Shown here: piece by piece, positions 12,138-63,896 of the stretch
Numbering within the stretch: the stretch's first letter is position 1
How the letters are laid out: each line of letters begins with the position of its first letter
Assembly: GCA_019828545.1 (NCBI GenBank)
Contig: JACVRA010000101.1
Span: forward strand, 178,658-242,657
Direction: 5' to 3'
Source of the DNA: Paracamarosporium sp. OC-R06-R3
Lineage: Eukaryota; Ascomycota; Dothideomycetes; Pleosporales; Didymosphaeriaceae
Length of the DNA: 64,000 nucleotides
The notes under the pieces: model-generated
Databases searched by the model: none
What the model was told of the DNA's origin: nothing
Seen by the model: the letters and a program-made list of their open reading frames with translations, nothing else
Made by a program: the position numbers and the translations under genes

Positions 12138-15100
12138 TTATTCCATAATACTAAAAACTAGCAGGTAACCAGTCGCAGTTCCAAGAGCTATAACGCGCCC
12201 ATATGTTGCTGAACATGTTACTCGATATTGAAAAGGGAGCAAAAGCACATTTTCAGTTTTATACCTAATCCACTGCCCGTTTGCAGAAACAAGTTGAAGC
12301 ACACTAGAGGCTTCATGATTTCTCCAATGGCCCGTGTTTGCGTCCCACAGCCGGACGGTGCTGTCCCCGGAACCGGACGCCAGTCGATCGCCCTGCGGCG
12401 AGAAGGCCACGCTCCTCACCGAATCCCTATGGCCCTCGAGCGTCTGCAGCGGCCGGCCCGTGTTCACATCCCACAGCTGGACGGTGCTGTCCTTGGAAGC
12501 GGACGCTAGTCGATCGCCCTGCGGCGAGAAGGCCACGCTTAACACCGAAGCCCTATGGCCCTTGAGCGTCTGCAGCGGCCAGAGCGTCCACAATCGCACT
12601 GTCTGGTCTCGGGAACCGGAGGCCACGCGATCGCCCTGCGGCGAGAAGGATATGTGTGAGATCGAGTCTGTATGGCCCTCGCGCGTCTTTAGCAGCTGGC
12701 CTACTTGGGCATCCCCAGCCGCACTGAACTGTAGACCAAGTCGCCAGCGAGTTGGTCTCCTTACGGCCAGAAGGTCACGCTCGAGATAGTTCGTCTGAGC
12801 ATCCCACAGTCGCACCGTCCTGTCGCCAGAACCAGAGGCCACTCGGTCTCCCTGCGGCGAGAAGGCCACGCTCGTGACACAAGCCGTGTGGCCCTCAAGT
12901 ATCTGCAGCGACTGCTTCGTCTGAACGTCCCACCGCCGTATCGTCTTATCGCCAGAGCTGGAGGCTATTTGGTCTCCTTGTGGCGAGAAAGCAACGCTCA
13001 CGACCCAGTCCGTGTGGCCCATAAGTATTAGTGATGGCCGGTCCGTCTTTGCGTCCCACACCCGCACCGTCTGGTCGACAGAACCGGAGGCGACTCGGTC
13101 TCCCTGCGGCGAGAAGGCTACGCTCGTAACCGAACCTCCGTGTTCATCGAACGTCTGCAGCAGACGGCCTGTATTCGCGCTCCACAGCTGCACCGATTGG
13201 TCGACAGAACCGGAAACAACTCGGTCTCCTTGCGGCGAGAAGGCTACGCTCGTGACTGAGCCCCTATGTTCTTCAAGCGTCTGCAGTAGACGGCTTGTGT
13301 TCGCGTCCCACAGACGCACCGTTTGGTCAACAGAACTAGAAGCAACCCGGTCTCCCTGCGGCGAGAAGGCCACGCTTGTGACCCAGTCCGCATGACCATC
13401 GAGCGTCTGTAGCAGACGACCCGTCTGGGCGTCCCACAGTCGCACTGTCTTGTCTCCAGATCTGGAAGCAATTCGGTTCCCCTGCGGCGAGAAGGCCACG
13501 CTCGTGACCCAGTCCGCGTGACCATCGAGCGTTTGCAGTAGAGACCCCCAAACCTCCTTAATCTTCGACTTTAGTTCTATACCTGTCGGTACATCTTTTG
13601 CGAATTGCTTTCAAATAATACTTCTTGCTGGGGCAAAGATTAGCGCAGAAGAGTACACCTGCAGAGGTGCCTCCTGTATTACTGCTCCACTCCACATTAT
13701 AAACCGCAGCGCATCATGGACCATCTTAGATAATGCTAAACTCTTAAACTATTTTCTAAAATTAGCTGCGTTACGACTTTCTATTTGTTTAACCACTTAC
13801 ATTAGTCATAGATTGTAACTTCTAAATTGCTGCTACAGCTTCTGGGATCTTCCGTAGCAGGCTCATAGCCTCAAACCAGTGTAATAGATGTTCCTGGAGG
13901 AAGTGATGGACTATACCGTCGTCTAGTAGGACACTGTTGCGAGCCTGTAGACATGTAATAAGATGGTCAGTCCAGTACTCGCATGCGTATGCTATTCGTG
14001 GAAGCGCGCTGGTTTTAATAAGATTACTCGCTTCTTGGATCCGAGCTCCTGGCTTCCCTAAACAGCATATGTCTCTTTGTAATGTACTCTGCATTGCCTT
14101 TAGCAGCCTATCAATCATCTGTTCCTCCTTTTCTAATACTGCACTCTGTAACACTTGCTGGCCTCGACCAGATGTAAAGTAGTCTTTAGCTAACAGGTGA
14201 ACAAAGAATACAGTGCCTTCACGAATAGTAAGAAACGAGCCGCAGCGACTTATAAGGTCAACAACCTCCCGAACATGTCGAAAATGACCTCTAGATAGGC
14301 CGGCAATAACAGCAATCTCTTCTAGTTTCAGCGGTCGATATGCAACAGTGACTGATCGAAGAATTTCTATACAGTGCTCTGCTGCCTTTAAGTCTTTCTA
14401 TACTAATATTTGTTGTATCATGCGGTGGTATAGCGGATCCAGCCCAGACAGTAGCTCGCGAAGTACTATTCGAATGTTGTAAAGCGGTACACTCTCTAGC
14501 TCTTGACAGACCAGCGACACCCATAGAAACGTGCCCTCTGCCTTGTCGCGGAGCTGGTGCTGGACCTCTGCTTTAGTCTCAGGGTCGTACTACTTTACAT
14601 CCGCCAAGTGTTATACCTTGTGGTCAATAAATGTGGCAACCGCTTTCGAAATGTGGCTAGCGTTGAGCTCAAGACTAACCTTGCCAGTAGGCGAACTGGG
14701 ATACAGAAACTGCTCAATATCTGGTAAGTTGCGGCTTGTCACTAGCCATTTACATTTTGAGCGTTGCGCAAGGTTATCGTCTGTGATGATCCGTAAAAGG
14801 TCAGATAATCCAGATGTACACTCATCGAGCGCGTCAACTAGAAGGTATGTCGTTGGCAGAGAGGGGTCATTGAGAATGTCCGACAGGATTCCTTTTAGTG
14901 TATAGAGTGCGTTGGATCCCTCAAACAACTGTTTTCCTGCCGCCTCGTAGGGCTTCTGCACGTGTCGTATAAGCTGCTCCCTTTGCACTACGAGTAAGTA
15001 TATAAGCCCTCGCAGCACTGAGGCTGCATTGTTGATCTCTGGCCTAGTACTTTGACAAAGAAAGTACGAGAGCAGATTCGGCCCATCTCTCTGTGATAGT

Positions 15101-15456
15101 TCATCGATCAGACCCATCGTCATCATTGTCTTGCCTTTGCCCGGGTCGCCTTTTATCCATAGCAGCCGTGCATCGGCTTGCGTCCGCCAACGCTGGAAAT
15201 TTGCGTCGTCTAGAATCCACCCATAGCACTGCCTAAGCAGCCTGTCTTTATCATGTTCGATCCTCGCTCGATCTGCGCGCGGGTCGGTGACTCTCAGATC
15301 GTGAAGACACTGGTGGGGTGCTGGTCCGCTAGGACCGTTGGCAAAGTTCACGTCACCATGTACGTTGCCGTAGACGTTTGTTGAACTACCGTGCGCTTGA
15401 TTACCGATGTACGTTATTGAATCGTTGGCCGGAGATTGCATGACTGCGACCCGCAC
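12138..15456 (-). pseudogene. Decayed NLR: NACHT NTPase with WD40 repeats (HET-E/NWD type)
   Basis: Remains of a STAND/NLR immune-type receptor. The frame opening at 15456 (first ATG 15441) encodes a Gly/Asn-rich stretch with GNQAHG and YGNVHGDVNF, then a NACHT domain with Walker A GDPGKGKT and Walker B LLVDALDEC. The linker (13.5-14.6 kb) still reads as typical NLR helical sequence on translation. The C-terminus has about nine 42-residue WD40 units (12.3-13.55 kb) and ends with a conserved tail at 12138. It is broken by in-frame stops at 14613, 14592, 14400, 13824, 13751 and 13613 and a frameshift between 13824 and 13751; one WD unit near 12.75 kb is also out of frame. Four stops look like CAA/CAG to TAA/TAG and one like CGA to TGA, the C-to-T pattern expected of RIP. 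An upstream exon beyond the transposon is possible. Confidence 0.88.
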
Positions 15457-15504
15457 GCCGCGGCCTCTAGATATTTGTTTAACCTACGACGGCACCATGC
15501 GCTA

Positions 15505-56203: not shown

Positions 56204-57364
56204 CTATTGAACACCCTCGATCACGACCTTGAAAACTCCCTCCTTGGCTGCCTTGACCAGTTCAAACGCCTTCTCCGCCTCTTCGAACTTGAATCGGTTC
56301 GTAATCAATGATTTTACATCGACCTTGCCCGAACCTACTAGATGCACCGCATCAGGATAGCAGCCAACTGAATAGCGAATGGAGCCCTTGATAGTCAATG
56401 CGCGGATGCACGCTGTTGTAATGGGGAAGACAACGTTCTAGTGCAAACCTCCGTTAGCAAAATTCTACAAGATTTCAAAATTGCGTGCGAGACTTACCTC
56501 CTTGCCCATACCAGCCTGCACATACGTGCCGCCCTTGATCGCAACATTGATACCAGCCTGGATACACGGCTCTGCACCCGTGCACTCTAGCACTACATCC
56601 GCACCCTCTCCCAGATCAAATTCCTCCTTGATCATCTTCGCAATACGCTCCGAGTGTACGACAGGGTCGACACCTTCCTCCGCCCGCGGAGGCAAAAACG
56701 TCCCATCAGCAGCGTACTTCTTCGCAAAGTCCAATCGCGATTGCGAGATATCAACTGCAATGACCTTCTTCGCTCCTGACGCTTTGGCTACGGCTTGCGA
56801 CAGCACACCAATTGGACCTGCACCGAAGACTACTACAGTCTGGTTTGCTCGTACGTCGGCGACTTTGCAGATCTGGACGGCTACTGAGACGGGCTCTACC
56901 ATGGCAGCTTCTTCCATGTCCATGCTGTCGGGAATCTTATAGCAGTAATCACTCGCAACGGTGTAGTATTTCGCCAGTGTACCGTCCCATGGTGGAGTCG
57001 CGGCGAAGATGGTATCATTGCATAGGTTGTAGTTTCCCGCACGGCAGTAGTTGCATCGTCGGCACGGGACGCCTGGTTCGATTGCGACGCGGTCTCCGAC
57101 TTTCAAGTTCGTCACCTTGGAACCAATTTCGACGACAGTGCCAGAGCTTTCGTGACCTAAGACGATGGGGCTCTCGAGGACAAAGTCGCCGATGCGGCCG
57201 CGTTGCCAGTAGTGGACGTCGCTACCGCAGATACCGGTTTGGGCGACGTGGACACGGACTTCGTACTCGTCGCGCAGTTTTGGAACTGGTCGGTCCTCGA
57301 AGGCAACATCTTTGACGGCACGAAGGACAAATGAACGATTTATCTCGGTGGTTGTAGACGACAT
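56204..57364 (-). CDS. Zinc polyol dehydrogenase (xylitol/sorbitol dehydrogenase family)
   Basis: Oxidises a polyol to the ketose with NAD; cytosolic. Exons 57364-56498 and 56437-56204 (366 aa). Catalytic zinc ligands Cys46 (GICGSDVHYW), His71 and Glu72 (GHESSG); structural zinc Cys101, 104, 107 and 115 (CRRCNYCRAGNYNLC). Rossmann motif VVFGAGPIGVLS. The sequence HYWQRGRIGDFVLESPIVLG is close to xylitol and L-arabitol dehydrogenases. The residue after the dinucleotide loop is Asp (AVDIS), which favours NAD. The ATG at 57364 is preferred over one 45 bp upstream because it matches the usual leader. Divergent from an SDR polyol/ketose reductase, suggesting one pentose or hexitol pathway. Confidence 0.9.
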
Positions 57365-57970
57365 TGTGAAGTTGTGGATAGTCGAGCACGAGTGGAAGGA
57401 TAGTAACAATTAAGATCGAAGGGAAGCTATGTTTTTTCAAGAAAAGTGAAAAGAATCATTCGATTTACCGTCCCAGCTTTCCGGTCCATTGTAAACAAAT
57501 ATCGCGCCTCTGTATGCGCGTCCACCTCGCATCGAGGGGCGAGGGTGCCTCTAGCTAAGGGTCAACGTCACCCGTCGACCCCTCCACTAGTCGCGGGGGT
57601 GAAACCCCGCCGTGTGGACCCACAGGGCTTCCAACGCCATGTGATGGGTAGATCGTATTCTTCGGGACCGTTAAAGATTCCATTTGTAGGATTAGCCGTC
57701 CGTTTACCATTAGTACCCGGAAAGGTGGATCGCTGAACAGCAACGACAGCAGGCCAGCGCATGCAGGGCGCAGGCGTACCCACCCCGAAGCTCTCCACGT
57801 CGGTCTGAACAACTGGATCGGCATCTTTGTGAGAAATCGTGAAGTACAATGACCCCATATGCTTCCCCTAGTTTTTCAATCTCTCCTCTCAATCCTGTCG
57901 CTTCCCATTTTACTTCTGTCCATTCATCCTTCACCCTACCCTGTCTTGAACCTATTCTACGCATACCAAC
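57365..57970. promoter_or_regulatory. Divergent promoter region of the polyol dehydrogenase / SDR pair
   Basis: 606 bp between two divergent start codons. Contains an inverted pair of GCGGGG boxes (57593-57610). The SDR leader just before 57971 is pyrimidine-rich. Limits are the two ATGs. Confidence 0.5.
57593..57610. promoter_or_regulatory. Inverted pair of CreA-type (SYGGRG) boxes
   Basis: gcgggg gtgaaa ccccgc: two GCGGGG boxes in opposite orientation with a 6-bp spacer. Both fit the carbon-catabolite repressor consensus SYGGRG, and closely paired sites are the functional form in Aspergillus genes. Position: between the two sugar-metabolism genes. Confidence 0.45.
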
Positions 57971-58768
57971 ATGTCTCTCGCCGCGCACCCTAACCCCTCA
58001 AGCTCCGTAACTTCCCACTTTTCTCTCAAGGGCAAAACCGCAGCCGTCACTGGCGGCGTCCGAGGAATCGGTCTCTCCGCCTCACGCGGCCTCGCCGAAG
58101 CAGGCGCCAACGTCGCCATCCTCTACAGCAGCACAAAAGACGCCGACGCCATCGCCTCACAAATCGCCAAAGACACCGGCGTAACCGTAAAAGCATACAA
58201 AGCCAGCGTCGAAAACAAGGAAGAAATAGCATCCGTGCTGCAACAAATCGCGAGCGATTTCGGCTCACTGGACATCGTGGTTGCGAACGCGGGTATTGCG
58301 AATCACCATGCGGCCGAGGACTACACCGAAGAGCAGTGGCGCAAGGTTATGGCTGTGAACTTGGACGGCGCATTTTACACTGCGCAGGCAGCGGGGAACA
58401 TCTTTAAGAAGCAGGGCCACGGTAACTTGATCTTCACGGCGAGCGTGTCCGCCATCCTTGTCAACGTGCCGCAGAAACAGGCCGCATACAATGCTTCCAA
58501 GGCGGGTGTAGTACAGCTTGCGCGGTGCTTGAGCGTCGAATGGGTCGAGTTTGCGCGCGTCAATTGCGTGAGCCCTGGGTTCATTGCGACGGATATGTTG
58601 GACGTGCATCCGGAGGCGCACAGGAAGAAGTGGTTTGACATGATTCCTGCGAAGAGGATGTGTGAACCTGATGAGTTGAAGGGCGCGTACGTTTTTCTGG
58701 CGAGCCAGGCGAGTTCGTACATGACGGGTGAGAACCTTGTTATTGACGGTGGATATACCCTACCTTAG
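57971..58768 (+). CDS. Short-chain dehydrogenase, sorbose/polyol reductase-like
   Basis: Classical SDR, intronless, 265 aa. Cofactor motif TGGVRGIG at 27-34, NAG at 106-108, catalytic Tyr173 and Lys177 in AAYNASKAG with Ser158 or Ser160 upstream, and the end MTGENLVIDGGYTLP. The fungal leader before the SDR core and FSLKGKTAAVTGGVRGIG match Sou2/mannitol-2-dehydrogenase and D-arabinitol-type reductases, which use NADP(H). Together with the divergent zinc polyol dehydrogenase it would interconvert ketose and polyol pools. The exact substrate cannot be set from sequence. Confidence 0.9.
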   Translation: MSLAAHPNPSSSVTSHFSLKGKTAAVTGGVRGIGLSASRGLAEAGANVAILYSSTKDADAIASQIAKDTGVTVKAYKASVENKEEIASVLQQIASDFGSLDIVVANAGIANHHAAEDYTEEQWRKVMAVNLDGAFYTAQAAGNIFKKQGHGNLIFTASVSAILVNVPQKQAAYNASKAGVVQLARCLSVEWVEFARVNCVSPGFIATDMLDVHPEAHRKKWFDMIPAKRMCEPDELKGAYVFLASQASSYMTGENLVIDGGYTLP

Positions 58769-59163: not shown

Positions 59164-62067
59164 TTATGGGCTCTCTGGTGCCGGGACCTTGTGTACACTT
59201 CTGTGCACTCTATTAGGTCGACCTATGTGCGATTCTCCGACCTGTCTTAAGGGCGGTTCCACGCGTAGTCTTCTATACTCTCTTGATGGCGAGCGTGTGC
59301 GTACATTTCTGTGCTCTCTTAATGGGGAGTTCGTGCGCATAGTTCTGTGCTCTCTTGAAGGCGAGTGCACGCGTCTTGAAGTTCTCCTGGGAGCATGCTC
59401 CCGAGGCCTTTCTTGTACGTAAATGCGCTGTGGGGACCACTCTCTTTGCCTATGGCGCTGTTCGAAGGCTAACTCGGGCGGTAGATACTCGCGTTCGAAG
59501 TGAGGGTCATTGGTATCTCTGCTGGACCGCTCTTGAACACGAATACTTTGTGAGGGCCGCCTCCTTCGGCTGTGACGCCGTTCGAAGGCCGCCTCGGGAC
59601 GTGGATACTCGCGTTCGAGCACTTCAAATCGAGGGCCTTCCCCGTAGTGCCTCGCCTGTTCTAGAGCCTCATCGAATCCTATATCTAGATCTCTTCGATA
59701 AGGGGGCGACCTAGAATCCAGCACGTGGGATGGGGCTTCGCGTTCAAGCACTTCAACTTGAGATCTTGCCGCGTAGCTCATGGACCGCTCTATAGCATCA
59801 TTGAGCATCATGTGTAGATCTCTTTGGAAATTGGGCGACGCAGGATTCACTATGGGTGGTGGGACTTCGTGGTCGAGCTCTGCGAATCGGGGGGATTCCC
59901 AGCCTGGTCGAGGGATCAAAGGTAGGGGAGGGGCCTGTGGAGAAGGATGGACAAATCCTGGAGCCTCTTGGTGGTTAGGAAGCCGCGTGGGCGGTACCGG
60001 GAGCACTCTAGGTAGTGGCCGCCTTGGGGCTTCATGCAGATCCGGTGGTGGCCGAGGCCTTGGGGGAATCTGCCTCGGAGGAGCAATACTGATTCTGAGT
60101 GCAGTGCTTTGGATATCGTCCCCTCTTCCGCTATCGGAAGATGATTCGTAATCCGATACTCGGGCATTGTATTTCTTTTTACTCTTCTCCGGATTAGATT
60201 CCAGGTCGGAATGCCATGTTATCCGGCGCGCGGTGGGTATGAGATTACTTGATGACTGGGGTGCACGGGTCCGATGACTCGACTCTAAAAAGCCTGAGAT
60301 GTATGTTGGTCTTAAGGACTCCATGCCGGACTGCGACCTCCATGGGGAAGGGTTAATGGTATCATGATGGTTCCAGGTCGAGCGTGGCGAATTGGGTCTC
60401 CGCTGTATGGAATTCGAGGGCAGTGAAGCTCCGGAGGGGGAGATATGCTCATGCCCACTCGACAAAATAAGTGAAGCCTGGACAACGTTCTGTCGTTCCT
60501 TCATAGAAACGTCATGTTTCCGTCGCGGCGGTAGCGGGCGCCAGTGGCTGGGTTTAGGGTGTGGCGGTGAAAAACGCGACGGAATTCGAGGAGGCGGAGA
60601 TGTGGGTTCGGTTGGCGTTACATAATAACCTGGGAGCTCGGGATGTTCAGAAGAGTTATGGGTTACATCGAAGGCGCTTCGTTTGCTTCTCCTCTGATGA
60701 CGATACTTCTTGCTAGAAGATGTGTCGACTCTGGTCCCGGTATACTCCCGAGGCTGATCACCTCTTATTATGCTAGGTCTCCCTATGGGTCCGGAGGGTA
60801 CGTCGTATAGCGAAGGCTGGGTCCGAAGCACTAGCAACATAGCGACTGTATCAGTTTTTCGGGATCCAAAGCGTCCGTACTTCTCGTTTTGAAAATGGAC
60901 ACACGCAACGACCCATGTTAGCCTTGCATTGTGTTTTTGCAACTCCACGTTCTCGTCCTGAAGAAGGTCATAGATTGCATCTCGTTGCCGTCTACTTTTT
61001 ATACCGTGGATCTTATGCATGACCCTAAAATCAGGCCTGTCGGTCATTTCTCTTTGCCAAATAACTTCGTAGCGTAGTTCTTTTGAAGATATACGTAAAA
61101 GCTCTCTATCATGGTTTCTCCAGGATCCCTTAGAGTCTCGACTGAAGGGTGAGTTGCGCATCTTGCTTCTTTTGCGAAGAGACCAACATGCATACATTGG
61201 ACGGTGTCGCATTTGGTTATATGGGTGATTGAATGGCCAGTCTGTAGCTGGATACATGGCTAACGGTGCTGGCTTGTACGGAAAAGTGTCGTTCAGGGGT
61301 CTTAGGTTTGGTGGAGGGACGAACAGAGGTCCGGGGCCGTAGTATCGCATGATCTGAAAGCTGAGCATCTCTTGATATAACGACTCATCCTTCGACGCCA
61401 TGCTTTTTTTGACGTCGGCGGGTAAACTGCGTTCAGGTCAGATTACTAGTTGGTTATTGAGAAGCATCTTCATTTTGTGTACCTGTGTGTCTCACTCAGT
61501 ATATCCAGTTGAAACATCTCGATTTCGAGGCGTAATCCATTCCTTCTCATGTCCACTTCAGCTGCTATAAGCTGAAGATTCTCCTGAAATTCTGTGGTGT
61601 AATTCTCATTTGGAATACCATATCCGATCTTTTTACTGATAGACTCGAACATTTCCCGGATATTACTGAGCCGTTTCAAAAACACCTTCACAGCCTGCGG
61701 CTCCGATTTCTTGCTTGATGAGAATCGTTGTACGACTTCTGGGAGACGCCCAATGATAGACGTCATTTGCCGAATGCTTTCTGCGATTAATGCGATACGG
61801 TGGCTGCAGATTTTGTTCACGCTAGATTTCTGACCATTCAGTTGCTTTACAACCTCCATACCAATATTGATAGTATAATGAGTCGGCCCTAGGCACTTGT
61901 AAGAAGCTATAGACAAGGTTTATACAGAAGGACGTACCAGTGATCCGATTGTTACCGACAATATTTCCAGCGGCGAATCCATGCTGATTGTTCTGTCCTG
62001 CGAAGTCTAGATTACCCCTAACGTTTTGACCGCCTGGAGGCTGGCTGTCTTTTTCTTCGATACCCAT
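59164..62067 (-). CDS. Large protein with N-terminal amyloid-like motif, helical domain and disordered repeat tail
   Basis: Exons 62067-61938, 61888-61483 and 61426-59164 (932 aa), all joins in frame; introns 49 and 56 nt. Residues 12-53 are Gly/Asn/Gln-rich (GGQNVRGNLDFAG, then GNIVGNNRITG) and end NNRITGPTHYTINIG, which matches the tail of the divergent hydrolase. Residues 54-178 are predicted helical without a P-loop. Residues 190-330 hold an ordered segment (MHKIHGIKSRRQRDAIYDLL, then LTWVVACVHFQNEKYGRFGS) of no family known to me. The rest is Pro/Arg/Ser-rich and disordered, with repeats near the end: two EREYxxPExAFExRH units and three SPxREHRxxRT-like units. There is no NACHT or kinase domain. 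Position and motif suggest partnership with the hydrolase 557 bp away; that is inference. Confidence 0.75.
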
Positions 62068-62623
62068 TTGAATATGATTTCATACCATCCGAAAAGAAAA
62101 ACTGACAGACGATAGCAAAAGAAAAATGTTAACTTCGAAACATTGCTTGCGCAAGCGAAGTACTGCAATGTGGACTGCACCATTACCCGGTCGAAGCAGA
62201 CATTCAGCTTCTCCTCGTTTTCAAGTATGTATTACTCAGAGAAAAAGCCTACAACATTGTTCAACCCTAGCCTTGGACCCTGCATATGGTCCAATCCATC
62301 GTCGTTCTCTGCCCAAAAGCTCACCGGAATTGGCGCTGATCAAGGGTCGGCATTACCGCCATTGGCCAATCTGCCACACAACTTCCGGTCGCAAACATCA
62401 GCTCCTGCAGCCACAGTTCGGACGTCACACTATACCTAGTGACTTTAACTCCGGTGGATACACCCATCAAATCGATAATTATGGCATACGGGCAGTTGTC
62501 TATATAGTCGCTGACTGCATGAAATACTCAGCCGCATCGTGAAAAATCGCGCATTATTTATCGTATTTATCTTGCACGATTCTAACAGTTAGAGAAACAG
62601 ACTTCAGTGTATGGCAGCTCAGC
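62068..62623. promoter_or_regulatory. Divergent promoter region of the motif-sharing pair
   Basis: 556 bp between the starts of the 932-residue protein (-) and the SesB-like gene (+). Frames here are short and without features. No TATA box stands out. Confidence 0.5.
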
Positions 62624-63896
62624 ATGGCCAAAAACGAAAGCGTCGGTCTTCTCAAGCTTTGGGAACCTCAAAACCCCGCTGGTGCGGCTGTTGAGTGAGC
62701 ATCCCATCGAATCTATATGCCATACCCTCACACCAGGCTAGCATTGTCTTCATCCATGGCCTTGGTAGCGATCGAAAAGATACCTGGACGTATACAGACC
62801 CAAAACGCCCGACCATTTTCTGGCCGGAAGAACTCCTCCCAGAGAAATGCCCCACCGCCCGCATTCTCACCTTCGGATACAATGCAGAGTTCATACAATT
62901 CTATTTCTCGAAGAAGCAGGTGTCCGATGGTACAAACATCAACGATCATTCGTCGTTGCTTCTTCAAAGCCTTGCTAATTTACGGTCCAAAACGCAAAGT
63001 GTATGTTTATTGCGGCTGCGTAGACTACTTCAAGCTGACTTGTGGTCACAGACCATGCGTCCTATTATCTTCGTTGCACACAGCTTAGGCGGGCTCGTCT
63101 GTGCGAATGCGCTATCGAGTTCTTCTGCTGCGGACGAAGCTACCAAGTTGATCGCTGAGCATACTTACGGTACGGTTTTCTTAGGCACACCCTTCGAGGG
63201 TTCCCCCAAAGCAAAGCCTGGTCAGACGATGCTACGTATGGCGGACTGGCTTAGTACCGATACGGATACGAGAGATATTGAAGAATTGAAGAAGAAGGCG
63301 GAGAAGCTTGGTGACATCAGGACCGCGTTCCTCAAGGTTCTGAAAGATAGAGATGCCGCTGGGAAACCGATCCACGTGACCTGTTACTTCGAAGCACGTC
63401 CAACTTACATACTTAAGGACACATGGATTTCTATTGGAGTCATCGTGGAAAAAGACTCCGCCACGCTCCCACCGTTCGACCCTGTACTTATTGAGGCAGA
63501 CCACGAAAGCATATGCAAATTTGGCGGAGAATGGGACAGTGGCTTCAAACACGTATCGGGGCTCCTTGCTCGTTTGATCGATGACCTTGGCAGGGGGAGT
63601 CGGCCTAACAAGCAGAAAGTAAGTCATGCCCCTGCCATGTGTGGCACATAGTGACTCTTGTAGCCGAGCATCTCTGTCGCAGGGAATGTGACACACGGTG
63701 ACAACTATGGCGGCCAACAATTCGGTCACCTCGTTGCCACCAAGAGAGACGGAAACCGTATCAACGGATCAAGCAGTCACGTAAGTCGCTTACAATTTCT
63801 ACTTCCGTGTGACTAGTATCCTAACTGCTGTAGACTTTCAATATTGGAGGTCCTAAGGCTCGAACAGGACAGAACGCGTACGGGGGCGATGATTAA
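62624..63896 (+). CDS. SesB-like alpha/beta-hydrolase with C-terminal amyloid-like motif
   Basis: Exons read as 62624-62689, 62737-63000, 63052-63618, 63664-63780 and 63834-63896 (358 aa). The fold is the lipase/esterase of SesB proteins: VGLLKLWEPQNP leader, SIVFIHGLGSDRKDTWT (oxyanion region), nucleophile Ser121 in AHSLGGLV, FLGTPFEGS, and His261 in EADHESICKF. After residue 299 two short exons encode a Gly/Asn-rich tail: SISVAGNVTHGDNYGG, then GNRINGSSSHTFNIGG, ending AYGGDD. The fourth exon uses the acceptor at 63663; the nearer-looking one at 63690 would give an immediate stop. The first intron has a weak donor (GTTGAG). In known fungal clusters SesB hydrolases are triggered by NLRs through such C-terminal motifs; here that is inferred. 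Confidence 0.8.

What the first reader, a model, noticed from the sequence alone, without database searches (positions are those of the whole stretch)
59164..63896. Two divergent neighbours share the motif: N-terminal in one, C-terminal in the other
Residues 39-53 of the minus-strand protein (NNRITGPTHYTINIG) and 329-343 of the hydrolase (GNRINGSSSHTFNIG) are identical at 8 of 15 positions, and both are preceded by a GQ-containing Gly/Asn stretch. In both genes an intron falls inside this motif. A shared short motif at opposite ends of neighbouring genes is the signature of receptor-effector pairs that signal by amyloid templating. Here the would-be receptor has no NACHT domain, which would make this a new type of pair.
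Basis: partly seen in the sequence, partly recalled or inferred. Interest (0 to 1): 0.88.

Follow-up and report, generated by a model that had tools for sequence, protein, structure and literature searches.

The report
Fungal amyloid-signal pair without NLR
Two neighbouring fungal genes share a short amyloid-like tag, one at the end of a cell-death-type lipase and one at the start of a helical protein, which suggests that fungi may trigger such lipases with receptors that are not the usual NLR immune receptors.

Summary
R1 (minus, 932 aa) and H1 (plus, 358 aa) are head-to-head; the stated 15-mers match at 8 of 15 (3 of 2,000 double shuffles reach that), inside a 39-column similarity. H1 belongs to a broad ascomycete SesB-like hydrolase clade with a related ~45-aa tail that hits no Pfam amyloid model. 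The same genome holds at least three more hydrolases with this tail. All four face a divergent gene whose N-terminus carries a related motif: R1, R2 (paralogue), R3 (unrelated non-NLR) and, at C74, a presumed NLR. Among these four N-termini each tail scores best with its own neighbour (one tie); cognate pairing ranks first of 24, though the NLR N-terminus prefers another tail. R1, R2 and R3 give no NOD hit.

Best reading: amyloid-type receptor-effector pairs in which a non-NLR helical protein replaces the NLR. Shared motif and pairing are shown in one genome; amyloid templating, receptor role and cell death are inferred. Two word-based searches of 5.8 billion proteins found one relative of R1, an exon-3 fragment, so co-occurrence across species is untested. 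New variant of a known kind.

The parts
59164..62067 (-). R1, would-be non-NLR receptor, 932 aa; exons 62067-61938, 61888-61483, 61426-59164
   Evidence: Splice model; intron positions and phases (1, 2) the same in paralogue R2; exon 3 has one relative P0001 (59% identity over 27% of the query)
61860..62025 (-). N-terminal motif of R1, residues 15-53 (NVRGNLDFAGQNNQHGFAAGNIVGNNRITGPTHYTINIG), split by intron 61889-61937
   Evidence: Local alignment with the H1 tail; top non-hydrolase hit of the hydrolase-tail profile
61485..61859 (-). Helical region of R1 (exon 2), three long helices; coiled coil is an inference
   Evidence: AlphaFold2 without alignment on 61485-61886, mean pLDDT 67.3; Foldseek PDB: 0 matches with E <= 0.001 of 339 with E <= 10
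60814..61194 (-). Conserved core of R1 (YACWSL to before SLYDVP), fold unknown
   Evidence: 50 of 118 aligned residues identical to R2; long identical blocks in P0001; model unusable, mean pLDDT 38.3
62624..63896 (+). H1, SesB-like alpha/beta hydrolase, 358 aa; exons 62624-62694, 62742-63000, 63052-63618, 63664-63780, 63834-63896
   Evidence: Splice model; DUF676 21.2 bits, cut-off 20.3 (on the 375-aa model); 265 homologues at E <= 1e-8, 120 listed, three of them named SesB or SesB-related
63667..63848 (+). C-terminal motif of H1 (SISVAGNVTHGDNYGGQQFGHLVATKRDGNRINGSSSHTFNIG), split by intron 63781-63833
   Evidence: Tail profile of 32 database hydrolases hits it (23.8 bits, E 1.6e-5); alignment with H2
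62068..62623 (.). 556-base region between the two start codons
   Evidence: Start codons; gaps 679 (C306), 408 (C61) and 786 (C74, candidate start) bases at the other pairs

Best explanation
H1 and R1 are an effector-receptor pair joined by a shared amyloid-type signalling motif. H1 is a SesB-like hydrolase that stays inactive until its C-terminal tail is templated into a cross-beta fold. R1 carries the matching seed at its N-terminus, followed by a helical, probably coiled-coil, region in place of the NOD and repeats of an NLR. Ligand- or state-dependent clustering of R1 through its helical and core regions would bring seeds together, nucleate the fold and recruit H1, whose activity would damage the cell. 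Shown: gene structure, shared motif, head-to-head pairing repeated at four loci, partner-preferring motif similarity, no detectable NOD in three of the four partners. Inferred: amyloid fold, direction of signalling, clustering, membrane damage or death.
For: Second pair C306: H2/R2 keep all 4 hydrolase and both receptor intron positions and phases, head-to-head. Third pair C61: H3 with R3, an unrelated non-NLR protein with an N-terminal motif. Fourth pair C74: same tail type facing a presumed NACHT-ANK NLR with a related N-terminal motif, the classical layout (PMC3321046, passages seen). 4 x 4 scores: H1-R1 50, H2-R2 42, H3-R3 42, H4-N4 40; 4, 4, 1 and 1 of 1,000 shuffles reach these; cognate sum 174 is first of 24. 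Of 1,171 Met-initiated pieces from the window and 7 loci, 0 reach the H1-R1 score. A profile of 32 database tails, no own-genome sequence, has R1's exon 1 as its best non-hydrolase hit among 11,061 partly redundant ORFs (E 0.45), and 6 of 5,000 shuffles of R1's N-terminus score as high. R3's paralogue R5 keeps exon 1 with the motif (26 of 36) better than exon 2 (46 of 77).
Against: All pairs lie in one genome. The database-only profile scores R2 (199 of 5,000 shuffles reach it) and R3 (87 of 5,000) weakly. N4's best tail is H2 (42), not its own H4 (40), and H2 ties R2 with N4. A sigma tail (C131) scores 46 with the H3 tail, above R3's 42. Paralogues resemble each other more (H1-H2 105, R1-R2 68) than pair members do, unlike the within-cluster similarity reported for sigma (PMC3321046). 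R5 at C60 has no hydrolase in the 1,042 bases to the contig end. No sensor domain is recognisable in R1. Segment ends and the 32 tails were chosen by hand. Amyloid formation untested.
Confidence: 0.55

Rival explanations
1. R1 co-assembles with H1 through the motif but is not the sensor: it is an adaptor, scaffold, second effector or inhibitor (decoy), and the trigger is an NLR or another protein elsewhere in the genome.
For: No sensor or NOD domain found in R1. The genome has many NOD genes (93 PF24883 matches, 22 PF00931, 50 PF05729, overlapping sets), and the N-termini of most were not read. One in the same window (open frame 14614-15483, minus) has a short Gly/Asn-rich N-terminus. SesA/SesB/NLR triads with one shared motif are known (PMC5485727, passages seen).
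Against: That NLR's N-terminus aligns with the H1 tail less well than R1 does (36, 76 of 2,000 shuffles). The motif is at R1's N-terminus, the receptor-side position, and R1 sits where the presumed NLR sits at C74. None of the three NOD profiles matches within 40 kb of the window pair. The NB-ARC gene nearest R3 reads by eye as HET-type at its N-terminus, with no plus-strand tail-profile hit above 0.4 bits in the 1.3 kb read.
Confidence: 0.22
2. The shared motif is a relic: an exon duplicated or exchanged across a shared promoter, kept without signalling function.
For: Small terminal exon at both ends; start codons only 408-786 bases apart.
Against: Introns differ in place and phase between R1 and H1; DNA identity only 27 of 45; exon 1 with the motif is better kept in R3/R5 than exon 2; the tail recurs across a large hydrolase clade.
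Confidence: 0.08
3. Chance similarity of two Gly/Asn-rich, low-complexity ends.
For: Profile scores are low in absolute terms (R1 9.8 bits, R2 2.4, R3 3.7, N4 3.3); an unrelated sigma tail scores above R3 with the H3 tail.
Against: Composition-preserving shuffles reach the four cognate scores in 4, 4, 1 and 1 of 1,000; repeated at four loci with partner preference; few unrelated pieces of 1,171 score as high (0 for H1, 1 sigma tail for H3, none but tails and partners for H2 and H4).
Confidence: 0.08

Closest known systems
sigma system of Nectria haematococca (SesA/SesB/HET-eN) and other SesB/NLR pairs (PMC3321046, PMC5485727; passages seen)
   Same: SesB-like hydrolase with a C-terminal Gly/Asn-rich motif; adjacent gene with the motif at its N-terminus
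   Different: Here 3 of 4 partners give no NOD hit; the tail does not hit PF17106, whereas a sigma tail of the same genome does
nwd2/het-S of Podospora anserina
   Same: Adjacent genes, motif N-terminal in one and C-terminal in the other
   Different: HET-S is a HeLo pore former and NWD2 an NLR; the motif here has no HET-s Pfam hit
PP system (PNT1, HELLP, SBP) with RHIM-like motif (PMC5485727, passages seen)
   Same: Also controls a putative lipase (SBP)
   Different: No hit to PF17046, the PP model; its receptor PNT1 is an NLR
Motif families found in short NLR N-termini (PUASM and unnamed; PMC9815663)
   Same: Neighbour-gene logic for finding motifs
   Different: Both searches described in the parts seen (section 20 and passages) require an NLR on one side; whether the motif here equals one of the unnamed families was not tested

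Membership tests
NLR-based amyloid signalling pair | Similar short motif, N-terminal in one neighbour and C-terminal in the other | tested here: met
NLR-based amyloid signalling pair | Adjacent genes | tested here: met
   Head-to-head at window, C306, C61, C74
NLR-based amyloid signalling pair | Receptor with NACHT or NB-ARC domain | tested here: not met
   R1 0 Pfam families at E <= 5; R2 (first 527 aa) ten sub-threshold hits, mostly coiled-coil families, no NOD; R3 0 families; NOD profile searches of the genome do not hit R1, R2 or R3
NLR-based amyloid signalling pair | C-terminal WD40, ANK, TPR or HEAT repeats | tested here: not met
   R1 no Pfam hit; R3 none; R2's C-terminal part was not scanned
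NLR-based amyloid signalling pair | Motif forms amyloid and cross-seeds | not testable with these tools
   needs experiment
NLR-based amyloid signalling pair | Effector causes regulated cell death when templated | not testable with these tools
   needs experiment
SesB-like hydrolase | Alpha/beta hydrolase related to SesB | tested here: met
   DUF676 over cut-off; homologues named SesB or SesB-related: P0054, P0065, P0068
sigma motif (PF17106) | Match to the family profile | tested here: not met
   0 of 13 tails and 0 of 4 N-termini at E <= 10; control sigma tail E 1.4e-8
PP motif (PF17046) and HET-s motif | Match to the family profile | tested here: inconclusive
   No hit, but Pfam filters are insensitive to short motifs and no positive control was run for these two

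The most novel reading that the evidence does not exclude
One amyloid-type motif family links SesB-like lipases to interchangeable, divergently transcribed receptors: an NLR at one locus, and at least two unrelated non-NLR helical scaffolds (R1/R2 type and R3/R5 type) at others. Amyloid signalling in fungi would then not need a NOD; any clustering protein can be wired to the lipase by the seed.
Probability: 0.5. Interest if true: 0.85.

Novelty: new variant of a known kind. Interest (0 to 1): 0.72.

Why it matters
In the passages and sections seen, fungal amyloid signalling is described with NLRs on the receptor side, and the motif survey whose methods I saw (PMC9815663) needs an NLR to find a pair. 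If non-NLR receptors exist, such surveys miss them, and the rule that a NOD provides the clustering step becomes testable by a natural swap: the same lipase tail type with a presumed NLR at one locus and with helical proteins at three others in the same genome.

Tried and rejected
Rejected: chance (shuffles); a recent inverted DNA copy (27 of 45 bases identical); membership in sigma; an NLR hidden next door. The 5.4 kb beyond the window's end reads by eye as 1.4 kb without a recognisable gene, then an SDR and a sugar-type transporter.

Led nowhere: protein searches for relatives of R1 (only P0001 at E <= 10 and E <= 1; both need shared 5-residue words and a length of 0.55-1.75 times the query; P0001's contig of 14,177 bases could not be fetched, and none of the 120 listed of 265 hydrolase hits has a longest contig of that length); scans of viral and prokaryote contigs (46, 10 and 64 pattern matches, none confirmed); AlphaFold model of the R1 core (pLDDT 38.3); NCBIfam and PDB sequence searches with H1. 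In the hydrolase tree H2 groups with Kalmusia P0002 (support 0.89) rather than with H1, hinting that the H1/H2 split is older than that species split; support inside the clade is partly low (0.53), and H4 was entered as a truncated hand model.

Choices made by hand: the 32 tails of the profile were picked by eye from the 120 hydrolase hits returned; the rest were exon fragments ending before the tail, carried other tails (many PF17106), or were left out though tail-like (P0011, P0026). Of about 21 places with a hydrolase match in the genome, 10 were looked at individually; all but C282 lay within loci scanned with the tail profile.

In one search H2-R2 scored 37 (29 of 2,000), with tail and N-terminus cut slightly longer, 42 (4 of 1,000).
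Full report
What is there. The window lies in a 43-Mb genome of 337 contigs, probably a filamentous ascomycete (inference from the hydrolase homologues). At 59164-63896 two genes diverge from a 556-base gap. H1 is a 358-aa alpha/beta hydrolase (Pfam DUF676, 21.2 bits against a cut-off of 20.3) of the SesB-like kind: 265 database proteins match at E <= 1e-8, 120 of them listed, three named SesB or SesB-related. R1 is a 932-aa protein with no Pfam match: a Gly/Asn-rich N-terminus, a helical exon 2 (three long helices, mean pLDDT 67.3 without an alignment; no significant PDB fold match), a conserved core, and a long Pro/Arg/Ser-rich tail.

The motif. The similarity extends over 39 columns. H1's tail is the local form of a tail seen in many close homologues, roughly G-[DN]-V-x-Y-...-N-x-G-V-[VI]-x-G-[HN]-x-x-S-T-x-x-D-G-x-[RK]-I-x-G-S. 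Of 13 tails scanned none hits PF17106, PF17046 or a HET-s model, while a sigma tail from the C89 hydrolase of the same genome hits PF17106 with E 1.4e-8 (tail read). I did not test the motif against the unnamed families of PMC9815663.

Other pairs in the genome. (1) C306: H2 and R2, paralogues of H1 and R1, head-to-head with a 679-base gap; all four hydrolase introns (phases 2,0,0,0) and both receptor introns (phases 1,2) are in the same places. H1/H2 share 182 of 299 residues in the body and 21 of 42 in the tail; R1/R2 share 18 of 53 in exon 1 plus motif, 38 of 123 in the helical part and 50 of 118 in the core. (2) C61: H3 (350 aa, introns of the same phases) faces R3, whose exon 1 carries the motif (GASAWNRGAITGNIGGDHNQII) before a different helical-looking exon and a low-complexity exon. 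R3 was not found to share sequence with R1 or R2 after the motif: the R1 search does not hit C61 and the R3 search hits only itself and R5. (3) C74: the hydrolase with tail ISLGNVKQGDNVLNYGIVTGHVV faces an ORF beginning MEDFPTAG... with LRLGDVDNRGDTVASPNYGSRVDGHVV, upstream on the same strand of a NACHT-ANK reading frame; the exons between were not resolved, so that this N-terminus belongs to the NLR is inferred. Six other hydrolase loci were read: C89 and C131 carry sigma-like tails, C171 another tail, C327 none recognised, and C245:172453 and C194 run on into what look by eye like NOD-type sequences. About 21 places in the genome match H1; 10 were looked at individually.

Partner preference. 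All 16 tail-by-N-terminus scores were computed. By tail, each cognate N-terminus scores highest (H2 ties R2 with N4 at 42). By N-terminus, three of four prefer their own tail; N4 prefers H2 (42) to H4 (40). The cognate sum is 174, first of 24 assignments (next 163). Shuffles of the N-terminus reach the cognate scores in 4, 4, 1 and 1 of 1,000. Against 1,171 Met-initiated pieces of the window and loci L038-L044, 0 reach the H1-R1 score; 2 reach H2-R2 (the H3 tail, 65, and N4, 42); 3 reach H3-R3 (the H3 tail itself, the C131 sigma tail, 46, and R3); 2 reach H4-N4 (both N4). With a profile built from 32 database tails alone, R1's exon 1 is the best non-hydrolase hit of 11,061 partly redundant ORFs, though its E-value is only 0.45; against shuffles R1 is clear (6 of 5,000), N4 less so (20), R3 (87) and R2 (199) weak. 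Segment ends and tails were chosen by hand, so these numbers are supportive, not exact.

Single parts. R5 (C60) is a paralogue of R3 with the motif kept (26 of 36 in exon 1, 46 of 77 in exon 2), but no hydrolase is recognisable in the 1,042 bases up to the contig end; downstream in its reading direction follows a RING-like segment (below Pfam cut-offs; that both belong to one gene is inferred). A tail without recognisable hydrolase lies at C178, probably a relic. The tail query that found it did not recover the tails of H1 and H4, so its sensitivity is limited and further members may exist.

NLRs. PF24883, PF00931 and PF05729 searches give 93, 22 and 50 matches, none within R1, R2 or R3 or beside them, except an NB-ARC gene about 4 kb beyond the 3' side of R3 whose N-terminus reads by eye as HET-type (the HET signature is recalled). 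The nearest NOD match to the window pair is inside the window (open frame 14614-15483, minus), about 44 kb away; its N-terminus aligns weakly with the H1 tail (36; 76 of 2,000 shuffles).

Mechanism. By analogy with nwd2/het-S and sigma (PMC3321046, PMC5485727, PMC7889193: passages seen), the N-terminal seed on a clustering protein templates the tail of the effector. R1's helical region offers a possible clustering device. The sequence shows the two ends and their partner preference; fold, clustering and outcome are inferred.

Literature. Searches and the passages seen in PMC5485727, PMC8086366, PMC3321046, PMC9815663 (plus its section 20), PMC12261475, PMC12881547, PMC7889193, PMC12258605 and PMC4986451 gave no description of a fungal non-NLR protein as the receptor side. 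Supplements, most subscription papers and preprints were not seen, so I do not claim that it is not in print.

Limits. One genome; no contig context from other species; one exon-3 relative of R1 (P0001). Presence of R1-type partners beside P0002 or P0003 is a prediction.

Noticed in passing
window 14614-15483 (minus): NACHT-matching open frame with a short Gly/Asn-rich N-terminus (ITYIGNQAHGSSTNVYGNVHGDVNFANG), itself a candidate amyloid-type motif of another kind; its effector partner was not sought.
   Followed up: partly
L075 (C60:314300-317278), about 1-1937 minus: R5, paralogue of R3 with the N-terminal motif; downstream in its reading direction a RING-like zinc finger (below Pfam cut-offs), perhaps a motif-bearing ubiquitin-ligase-like protein.
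   Followed up: partly
L076 (C178:23300-25300), 1406-1561 plus: Isolated hydrolase-type tail (NQGVVMGHAHSTATDG) without a recognisable hydrolase in about 1.4 kb upstream; probably a relic.
   Followed up: partly
L006 (C174:116780-120025), from 1252 plus: Weak possible relative of the R1 core (22%, E 0.12) in a reading frame without the motif exon: the core may belong to a wider family.
   Followed up: partly
window 56465-58768 and L077 (C3:244051-248050): By eye, the H1/R1 pair sits between two short-chain dehydrogenase genes, with a zinc alcohol dehydrogenase-like frame on one side and a sugar-type transporter on the other; H3 at C61 also has a transporter-like frame downstream (L039 5734-7532).
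   Followed up: no
L044 (C89) and L043 (C131): SesB-like hydrolases with sigma-like tails; a NACHT match lies at C89:176852-177373, near the C89 hydrolase.
   Followed up: no
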